The position numbers and the translations under genes were made by a program. This document shows positions 46,834 to 49,900 of a stretch of 64,000 nt of DNA, piece after piece. Source of the stretch: Synchiropus splendidus (lineage: Eukaryota > Chordata > Actinopteri > Syngnathiformes > Callionymidae); the NCBI RefSeq assembly GCF_027744825.2, contig NC_071347.1:16286501-16350500 (forward strand). The letters are read 5' to 3'. Under the pieces are notes generated by a model that was not told the origin of the DNA, did not search any database, and saw only the letters and a list, made by a program, of their open reading frames with translations. Each line of letters begins with the position of its first letter. Within the stretch, counting starts at the first letter, position 1.

Positions 46834-46905
46834 TTATTCATGTTTCCACGGTTCTTCCTCAACAAGCGTGCACTCCGCAGCAGAGCCGTTTGTGGCTGAG
46901 GTTAC
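46834..46905 (-). CDS. slc1a2: slc1a2 exon 11, GLT-1a type C-terminus
   Basis: After acceptor TGTTTCCAG it encodes VTSATNGSAAECTLVEEEPW followed by KHE and TAA. This aligns with the human GLT-1a tail (starts VT, ends EEEPWK plus basic residues). It joins in frame to the internal donor of exon 10 directly after the Cys-Lys codons. Confidence 0.93.
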   Translation of the reverse strand, partial: VTSATNGSAAECTLVEEEPWKHE

Positions 46906-49900
46906 CTGGAAACAGTTAGCAGGAAGAGCTGAACAGCCGGACAAAGGCACTGCATCCTCGCTGCGCTCTTTGGTGGGAGACTAGCTGAGTCATGTGCGTC
47001 TCGACATATTAGGAAAACTCACAATCTATTACAATAAAAGTCATTTACACCAATATAGTGGATGCTATTTGAAAAATATAGTCACACAGAATGAACATAG
47101 TGTTTCCTGGGAACAGTGCAAAAGTACAAAAACACAATACAGATGAGAAACATTCAGTGCAAAATTTGTTGGATATATATTTGATTCTTGCTCCAAATTT
47201 TGAAAAGTAAATATAATAATATTAATAATAACACACTTGAGTAACGCTAGTAAATGCCATGATCTCGGATTAAATCTGGCATTCAAATATTAAAACCATT
47301 CATAACCAACATCTTTGCACAGTGGCTTAACTTATTTTTAGCTTCCTCATGCTCCTCACAGTAAAACATGGGAAACTAAGGCAAATGTAAGGCCATAATC
47401 TGATTTACATTTAAAGTTTATTCAAAGTAAACTAATAATAATAACAATAACAATAACAACAACAACAATAATAATAAATAATAATAATAATAATAATAAT
47501 AATAATAATAATAATAATAATAATAATAATAATAATAATAATAATAAATGTCATTATTATATTATTACTAGTAGTAGTAGTGATACTTAGTACTTGTAGT
47601 ATTGTAGTGGTCTGATTTTATGCCATATAAATGCCAACTGAAGATACCACAAAAAAATAAAAATAAAACAATAATAATATAAACAATTATTCATAGCTCC
47701 TCAATTACCCAATATTCATTCATTTTTCGGTAGTACTAGTATTTTTACAAGTAGTTTTTGTGTGGAACAAAAAAGTCAACATCTAGCTTATCGCCATAAC
47801 CAGAATTGCATTGTCAGAACTAGAGGCGTTATTGTACATGCATAGACTGGTTTCTCTCTGAAAATGTGGATGCAATATTTTACATTTTTATTTGGTAGCT
47901 GCTGTAGAACTCTACTGGTTGTATTCACACCATCCATTTTTCTCGGACATGGATGACTGTGTTTTTATTTTAAGTATAATGGAGCTGAAAGTCAGTAATG
48001 TAAGGAAGATTAAAATCCGTTCCCTCAAACAACAGTGAAAAATGATACAGTACAGTCCAAAAAAAAAAAAAAAAAATTGGACAAAAACAAACTGAAAATG
48101 AACACAAACTACATAGCGAGTGCGATGTTAGCTACTACGCAGGGTTAGAAATGCGAGTCATGCTAATAGATGAGCTAAGAAAAGATGGCTGATACATGAA
48201 ATAGCAAGCCTTTGTGTCACATTCATATGCAAATCTCAGGAAGGGGGACATAACTTTTAACTATGGACAGATTGCTGGTGTGACAGGTTGCCAGCGTTGC
48301 TAGGCAACACCACCCATTCTGTAATAAATGAATAGGCCCATCAGTAGACCTCTTTCACGGAGACGAACGCCGTGGAGCCGCTGTTCGGAAATATATACAG
48401 GCCATTACAGTAAAGTATGGGCGCTGGCACGCCAGCTTCATCCGTGTTTTATGGCCATATTCTATTTTCCTACATCTCAGGGAAGCGTCAGAAATAGCTG
48501 GTGTGAACCCTGGGAATGGGTGAATCACTGTCTCTGTGGGAAGTGTATGAGCTGCTAATTATATTTGACACACCCGCAAATGTATTTCTACGCAGACTGT
48601 ACATTTAAATTGAATAAAAGAAAGAAAAAAAATATATATATATAATGTTAGGTATGGTACGATTTATTTTTCTGATAGCATTCGGAGTCTAAGTCTTATG
48701 TTAAACACTTGTTTTATAAATTCGATGAATGAATTTTTGTTTCACAAAAGCTGCTGTTCCCTCAAAAAACAAATAGAAACATACAACAAACATGCGTTCT
48801 ATTTTCATGCACAACAAACAAAAGCTGGTGAATACCATGAAGACGGACCAGTCTCATGCAACGGCGGTGCAGGCTTAGATTGAAGTCTCTATGTCAGCAA
48901 GTGTTAATAGTACCTTGCATTCATCTACTACGACAGAATTGTTAGCAGTAGAGGCAGACGATAAGACGCACTGGTTGGAATTGTTTTCGTGGTGGTTCTT
49001 CATGTCATCGTAATAGGACTGGGTCTTTGTCATCATCTCAATGTCATCTGACTTAGCCATGTGAGCATCCAGCTCGTCCAGTTCCGCCTTGGACATGTGG
49101 TAAACGATGCCCGCACCGTAGGAGTCGCCCACCACGTTAACAGAGGTCCTGAATCGATCCCTGCGGAGATCATTTTTATTGGAAATGCCGTAAAATTCCC
49201 GACATAAAAAGGAGACGGAAGGCATGGAGGAATAGCATGAAACTCACAGCAGCCAGTCAACAGCAACCAGCAGGCTGATGTCCTGAGTTGGCAGGCCCAC
49301 AGCAGTTAGGATCAGCAGCATGGTTACCAGGCCGGCACTCGGAATACTAGCGGCTCCGACACTGGCCAGGGTGGCGGTGAGACTGTACAAAGAAAAGAAA
49401 CTAAATGACAAACTCTTCACTCGCTCCTCAGACGGCCTTCAGGCGCCGCCATTGAAATCGGTTTAATTCAGTCTGTCTAAGTGATGCTTGTCTGGAGAGC
49501 TGCACCGTAAGTGGACCAGTGGGAGTCCTTCATCGAGCGCGAAGAGCTACAGATACCCGAGGAGTGATGATTGATACGAGGGCCGGCGCGAGTGCTGGTG
49601 CAGACCAAAGGTCGACCGCGCTTTACTTTCCAGCTCAAGGTGATTACAGTATTTCATGCTCATCACTTGAACACTGATTGAACAAAGACGCCAGATTTCG
49701 GGGGGGCGTGACTCCAGCCTTTTCTTAAGGGACTCTTGCCACGCAATTGAATGCAAAGTGGATATGATTGTATCCACTTCAAGCTCATGTGCAGACACAA
49801 CAAATAAAGGCCTTTCCTCGTGACTTATGAAACGTATATGCACATGTCTAAAACATCGAGTACAAAGACAAAAATGGTTGGTTACAGACATGAAGCTTCT

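What the first reader, a model, noticed from the sequence alone, without database searches (positions are those of the whole stretch)
46834..49160. slc1a2 encodes both GLT-1a and GLT-1b C-termini through an optional donor in exon 10
Exon 10 has an in-frame donor AAG|GTACTA right after the Cys-Lys codons. Splicing to 46834-46905 yields a tail ending EEEPWKHE, like mammalian GLT-1a. Reading through yields LADIETSI and a stop, like mammalian GLT-1b (LDIETCI), with a PDZ-ligand type end. So the same intron-retention switch seems to exist in this fish, with the second-last residue Cys changed to Ser. It implies an ancient regulated choice affecting transporter anchoring.
Basis: partly seen in the sequence, partly recalled or inferred. 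Interest (0 to 1): 0.75.

Follow-up and report, generated by a model that had tools for sequence, protein, structure and literature searches.

The report
Two endings of a fish glutamate transporter
A fish gene for the main brain glutamate transporter can end in two ways, just as in mammals, and comparison with its sister genes suggests that the rarer ending, known in mammals to grip scaffold proteins, may be the original one.

Summary
On the minus strand, slc1a2 (EAAT2/GLT-1) exon 10 can splice at AAG|GTACTA to exon 11 (46905-46834), giving the GLT-1a-type tail ..VEEEPWKHE. Read through, it gives the GLT-1b-type tail VLLTLADIETSI and a stop. Antiquity holds up: 62 of 270 homologues read here carry the read-through tail, from mammals, reptiles, a bird, caecilians, bowfin and many teleosts. 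A second EAAT2 copy (contig C5, best read as slc1a2a) in the same genome keeps both tails (DIETCM; VEEEPWKCE). The copies agree mainly at codon positions 1 and 2, and agreement drops after the stop codon. The exon-10 donor scores lowest in both genes, and the residue that encodes its +4 to +6 bases allows neither A at +4 nor G at +5 in 62 of 62 tails. In 13 SLC1 loci of this genome the homologous exon, read to its first stop, ends in [ST]-x-hydrophobic in 9 (ETKM, ETTM, ETNV and others), so the read-through ending may be ancestral and exon 11 added. Expression, regulation and binding are not shown. It is a fish case of a known isoform pair.

The parts
48914..49160 (-). slc1a2b coding exon 10 (common part, ends ...VVVDECK)
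   Evidence: matches human EAAT2
48908..48916 (-). optional 5' splice site AAG|GTACTA, cut between 48914 and 48913; lowest-scoring of the 9 donors placed (exons 2-10)
   Evidence: score 3.41 against 4.75-8.58; frequency table recalled
48875..48913 (-). read-through tail VLLTLADIETSI and TAA stop (GLT-1b type, class I PDZ-ligand-like end)
48663..48668 (-). AATAAA 206 bases after the read-through stop: possible poly(A) signal for a composite terminal exon
   Evidence: a motif only
46906..48913 (-). intron 10 (2008 bases)
46834..46905 (-). exon 11 coding part: VTSATNGSAAECTLVEEEPWKHE and TAA stop (GLT-1a type)
   Evidence: the same tail stands in many fish records
49248..49382 (-). coding exon 9
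50841..51035 (-). coding exon 8
51108..51341 (-). coding exon 7
51532..51658 (-). coding exon 6
51779..51926 (-). coding exon 5
53442..53692 (-). coding exon 4
53766..53918 (-). coding exon 3
56458..56597 (-). exon 2, with the Met of MPKQVEVRMHESH at 56587

Best explanation
This is slc1a2b (a teleost EAAT2 gene). It encodes two C-terminal tails through use or non-use of one weak 5' splice site inside its next-to-last coding exon. If the site is spliced, exon 11 supplies the GLT-1a-type tail. If it is not, the ribosome reads 12 more codons, VLLTLADIETSI, and stops; because this is the last intron of the coding part, no known splice junction lies downstream and nonsense-mediated decay should not remove the message (inferred). 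The 3' end of that message is either an early poly(A) site in intron 10 or the normal one behind the retained intron (undecided). The ETSI end is a class I PDZ ligand by its letters, expected to bind PICK1, PSD-95 or DLG1 type scaffolds as the mammalian ETCI end does, so the ratio of tails would set how much transporter is anchored (inferred). Shown: exon anatomy, both frames, deep conservation, retention in a second gene copy. Inferred: expression, ratio control, binding.
For: Anatomy. Conservation: of 270 homologues held, 62 carry the read-through tail, 186 the spliced tail and 22 neither (tails printed); Oreochromis niloticus, Takifugu, Denticeps, Gasterosteus, a tortoise and human are among those with records of both. 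Second copy on C5 in the same genome: DDCK|VHFTLTDIETCM* and exon 11 VTMAKNGKTAEFSLVEEEPWKCE*. The two copies match at 27 of 39 tail bases, against 18-38% in the next eleven 39-base blocks; matches by codon position are 11, 11 and 5 of 13 (Fisher 22/26 against 5/13, p = 0.008). The rat tail bases, read from a primer printed in PMC4915597, match C5 at 27 of 39 and the window at 23 of 39, again least at position 3. The exon-10 donor scores lowest in both genes: 3.41 in the window (8 others 4.75-8.58), 5.29 on C5 (8 others 5.71-9.92). Mammalian isoform pair and its partners: passages of PMC5608761, PMC8076567, PMC10867268, PMC4915597.
Against: No RNA evidence from this fish. As far as their labels show, the fish records with the read-through tail are database predictions; I did not see their RNA support. 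Of the cyprinid models held that lack the spliced tail, 0 of 7 end in ET[CS]-hydrophobic (Sinocyclocheilus, Cyprinus), so the tail may not be kept everywhere. 22 of 270 homologues end in neither tail. The RNA fold at the donor is ordinary (z 0.03 and 1.62), so nothing specific for regulation was found. Sharks and lampreys were not reached.
Confidence: 0.88

Rival explanations
1. The read-through tail comes from a composite terminal exon: cleavage and polyadenylation at AATAAA 48668 competes with splicing of the weak donor, rather than retention of the whole intron.
For: AATAAA lies 206 bases after the stop, followed by a T-rich stretch; four AATAAA lie in the 2008-base intron.
Against: The C5 copy has no AATAAA or ATTAAA in its 724-base intron; of the four weaker hexamers also scanned only TATAAA at 15337789 occurs, so an early canonical poly(A) signal is not shared by the two copies.
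Confidence: 0.45
2. The second tail is only leftover coding sequence: unspliced message exists as noise and the tail has no function in fish.
For: No transcript evidence here; the tail looks changed in cyprinid models; in mammalian hippocampus GLT-1b is a small share, about 6% (passages).
Against: The frame, the stop and the D-I-E-T-x-hydrophobic end survive in both copies with change concentrated at codon position 3 while the bases behind the stop do not align, and in 62 of 270 homologues across bony vertebrates.
Confidence: 0.08
3. The C5 gene is not the slc1a2a duplicate but the older slc1a9 (EAAT7) gene, so the shared tail would date from before the teleost duplication.
For: Exon 10 of C5 is at most 67.5% identical to the EAAT2 proteins held (best bit scores). 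No tree or synteny was made.
Against: C5 has both EAAT2-type tails, matches human EAAT2 far better than EAAT1 constructs or EAAT3 (537 against 380 and 342 bits), and another locus, C19, reads on for long to its first stop with neither tail, in line with the longer last exons that PMC2873418 describes for slc1a9 (passages).
Confidence: 0.07

Closest known systems
Mammalian GLT-1a / GLT-1b (EAAT2a / EAAT2b) isoforms of SLC1A2
   Same: Same branch point after ECK; spliced tail ending EEEPWK..; read-through tail of 11-12 residues ending DIETxI; rat cDNA has the same AAG-GTAC bases at the branch.
   Different: Last but one residue Ser instead of Cys; LLTLA instead of PFPFL or HFPFM before DIET; two gene copies with both tails in the fish genome.
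Other EAAT tails with PDZ-ligand-like ends (EAAT1 ..SETKM, EAAT5 ..LETNV, EAAT4 ..ESAM in human, Table 1 of PMC5608761)
   Same: E-T/S-x-hydrophobic end, in the exon homologous to slc1a2 exon 10; fish versions TETKM, SETTM, IETNV, ESSM.
   Different: In these genes the end is reached in that exon itself; an optional donor with an extra exon behind it, as in slc1a2, was not looked for in them.
slc1a9 / EAAT7 (C19 here, by inference)
   Same: Next after the two EAAT2 copies by exon 8 identity (91%).
   Different: Long proline- and serine-rich reading to the first stop, neither tail.

Membership tests
SLC1A2 / EAAT2 transporter | SDF (Na:dicarboxylate symporter) domain and full-length match to EAAT2 above other EAATs | tested here: met
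   Pfam SDF 8e-118; human EAAT2 974 bits, best EAAT1 construct 574, EAAT3 525
GLT-1a isoform | tail after ECK spliced from a separate exon, ending EEEPWK- | tested here: met
   186 of 270 homologues by a loose tail rule
GLT-1b isoform | 11-12 residue tail after ECK ending D-I-E-T-C-I | tested here: met
   VLLTLADIETSI, with Ser for Cys; ETSI in 10 and ETCI in 47 of 62 tails
GLT-1b isoform | tail coded by the bases that directly follow exon 10 (no splicing) | tested here: met
   also C5
GLT-1b isoform | transcript and protein made in glia or retina | not testable with these tools
   no RNA data held; fish protein records with this tail exist in UniRef and NCBI, their RNA support not seen
GLT-1b isoform | binding of PICK1, PSD-95 or DLG1 PDZ domains | not testable with these tools
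   known for mammals from passages; the fish end keeps T at -2 and I at 0

The most novel reading that the evidence does not exclude
The so-called variant tail (GLT-1b) is the original ending of the transporter family, and the standard GLT-1a tail is the newcomer: EAAT2 gained a splice donor inside its old last exon plus a new exon behind it. Because the donor lies in coding sequence for the old tail, it has been held weak throughout bony vertebrates (in 62 of 62 tails the codon after Lys-Val supplies neither A at +4 nor G at +5), and this built-in weakness is what makes both isoforms.
Probability: 0.5. Interest if true: 0.6.

Novelty: new member of a known kind. Interest (0 to 1): 0.42.

Why it matters
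EAAT2 is the main transporter that clears synaptic glutamate, and in mammals the GLT-1b tail, unlike the GLT-1a tail, docks on PDZ scaffolds. This fish has two copies that both keep the choice, so the tails could be removed separately in a living animal with the same pair. If the read-through tail is the ancestral end, the question changes from why a minor variant exists to what the added GLT-1a exon brought (PMC10867268 reports cortical-actin association for GLT-1a; abstract and passages seen). The overlap of donor and tail codons gives a simple, testable account of the isoform ratio.

Tried and rejected
Chance match of the tail: rejected (codon-position pattern). RNA hairpin at the donor as a switch: no support (z 0.03 and 1.62). 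C5 as slc1a9: held unlikely. Shared early poly(A) signal: not supported, since C5 lacks AATAAA/ATTAAA in the intron. First coding exon upstream of 56597: looked for with five N-termini by tblastn, no convincing hit for the 16 extra residues, left open.

A report of the GLT-1b tail in fish: I saw none in the titles listed (searches returned 0 papers; two searches listed 15 of 80 and 12 of 39). PMC2873418 on fish SLC1 genes does not hold the word GLT-1b. Outside mammals the pair is not new: a 2002 paper on both variants in retinas of mammals and chickens stands in the reference list of PMC9121915 (title only). The library misses most subscription papers, and the salamander and goldfish EAAT2 papers cited there were not read. 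None of the ten searches was aimed at the ancestral-ending idea.

Limits of the counts. The tail rule itself asks for [ILV][ED]T[CSG][ILM], so the constancy of E-T inside that class is partly imposed; the 22 proteins in neither class were left out of the tail statistics. Only the best 120 rows of each search were held (of 382, 142 and 261), chosen by E-value, so the class counts are not population frequencies, and many rows are close relatives or the same gene. The donor score uses a frequency table recalled from memory; the +4/+5 statement does not depend on it. The 20,000 shuffles treat related genes as independent, and for loci without a known human counterpart the read to the first stop may run into an intron. 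One search warns that its counts are lower bounds.

Full report
What is there. The window carries most of a fish slc1a2 gene on the minus strand. Ten coding exons (2 to 11) were placed with GT/AG ends and join into one frame of 566 residues. The joined protein has the SDF domain and aligns with human EAAT2 to within one residue of its end, well ahead of EAAT1 constructs and EAAT3. The first coding exon was not found. Its closest named relatives are percomorph fish proteins, several of those listed being labelled 2b, so I call it slc1a2b.

The claimed choice is confirmed. Exon 10 ends ..VVVDECK at 48914. Splicing at AAG|GTACTA to 46905 gives VTSATNGSAAECTLVEEEPWKHE*, and reading on gives VLLTLADIETSI* ending at 48875. 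Human EAAT2b ends HFPFMDIETCI and rat GLT1b PFPFLDIETCI (Table 1 of PMC5608761, passage). A degenerate DNA pattern for the motif plus stop has 4 matches in the 582.7 Mb genome, this one included (pattern read backwards: 2), so an in-frame hit at this very place is not chance.

How widely it is kept. Three protein searches gave 270 homologues that I could read, out of longer capped lists. By a simple tail rule, 62 have the read-through tail, 186 the spliced tail and 22 neither. Read-through tails come from many percomorphs, one cod relative (Muraenolepis), a salmon, a piranha (with extra residues after the motif), Denticeps, two bonytongue-group fish and bowfin, and from snakes, Varanus, tuatara, turtles, peafowl, lynx, two rodents, human and two caecilians. 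The Ser in ETSI is shared with Xiphophorus, Poecilia, Oryzias, Perca, Sander and Muraenolepis, so Cys to Ser looks like a repeated mild change; threonine at -2 and a hydrophobic last residue remain.

The second copy. The same genome has another EAAT2 gene on contig C5, with DDCK|VHFTLTDIETCM* and, behind a 724-base intron, VTMAKNGKTAEFSLVEEEPWKCE*. A third, C19, reads on for long to its first stop and has neither tail; PMC2873418 describes longer last exons for slc1a9 (passages), so C19 is best read as slc1a9 and C5 as slc1a2a. No tree or synteny was made. The read-through stretches of the two copies agree at 27 of 39 bases; the next eleven blocks of 39 agree at 18-38%. Agreement by codon position is 11, 11 and 5 of 13, lower at position 3 (p = 0.008). 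A rat sequence read from a printed primer shows the same pattern.

How it probably works. The exon-10 donor has the lowest score in both genes (score table recalled). Of the 16 other donors in the two genes, 15 have G at +5 and the remaining one (window exon 3, CAGGTGAAG) has A at +4; the two exon-10 donors have neither (read). The second codon of the read-through tail is also donor bases +4 to +6. In the 62 tails its residue is Q 23, P 18, H 13, L 5, Y 2, D 1: the most variable position among 29 distinct tails, yet with no residue whose codons start with A or have G in the middle. Rat has GTACCT. This fits a donor held weak by, or for, the dual use; with side chains so different, a purely protein-level reason is less likely, though not excluded, and related species are not independent. 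Since this is the last coding intron, read-through messages should escape nonsense-mediated decay (inference). Whether the window copy ends its read-through message at AATAAA 48668 or retains the whole intron is open; C5 has no AATAAA or ATTAAA in its intron. The RNA fold at the donor is ordinary.

A reading beyond the finding. I looked at the exon homologous to exon 10 in the 13 SLC1 loci found in this genome. In 13 of 13 it begins at the same place and phase, one base before the Asp-Arg codons. Read to its first stop, the EAAT1-, EAAT4- and EAAT5-like genes end in TETKM, SETTM, ESSM and GIETNV, in line with the human ends in PMC5608761. In all, 5 of 13 end in E-T-x-hydrophobic (the two EAAT2 read-throughs and three others) and 9 of 13 in [ST]-x-hydrophobic; four loci (L007, L031, L033, L034) have no such end. 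Shuffled tails gave a mean of 0.015 for the first class and never reached 5 in 20,000 (the genes are related, so this is not an independent test). The simplest account is that the family's old ending is the read-through one and that EAAT2 later gained a donor and exon 11. I give this 0.5, since no outgroup was available to root it and short PDZ-ligand ends can arise more than once.

What is not shown. There is no RNA, protein or binding evidence for this fish, and I did not see the RNA support of the fish records. Of the cyprinid models held that lack the spliced tail, 0 of 7 end in the motif, which may be loss in that family or poor models; if loss, work in zebrafish could miss this isoform in slc1a2b.

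Verdict. As an isoform pair it is a fish member of a known kind, and such tails already stand in fish protein records; the added value is the retention in both copies, the constrained weak donor and the possible ancestral status of the read-through end.

Noticed in passing
P0108, P0129, P0134, P0138, P0140, P0146, P0159 (Sinocyclocheilus and Cyprinus): Seven cyprinid slc1a2 models without the spliced tail either begin the read-through frame alike (KVQVTLMD.. or similar) or lack it, and none ends in ET[CS]-hydrophobic; possible loss of the PDZ-ligand tail in slc1a2b of the zebrafish family, or poor models.
   Followed up: partly
G000: C14, C5, C19, C3, C1 (four loci), C7, C13, C16, C9, C8: Thirteen SLC1-family loci (a lower bound), the same number that PMC2873418 gives for zebrafish (section title seen); all share the acceptor and phase of the last core exon.
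   Followed up: yes
window 42034-42426, minus strand: Open frame of 130 codons with an arginine-rich stretch (RRWRGRPKRR..) that recalls the end of a LINE-type ORF (recalled, no test); no Pfam match.
   Followed up: partly
window 52350-52800 and 47460-47560: Simple repeats inside slc1a2 introns: a long run read as (LSIY)n in three plus-strand frames, and an ATT run in intron 10.
   Followed up: no
window 46896-46905, minus strand: A second AG ends 10 bases into exon 11 (GTAACCTCAG); use of it would shift the frame of the GLT-1a tail.
   Followed up: no
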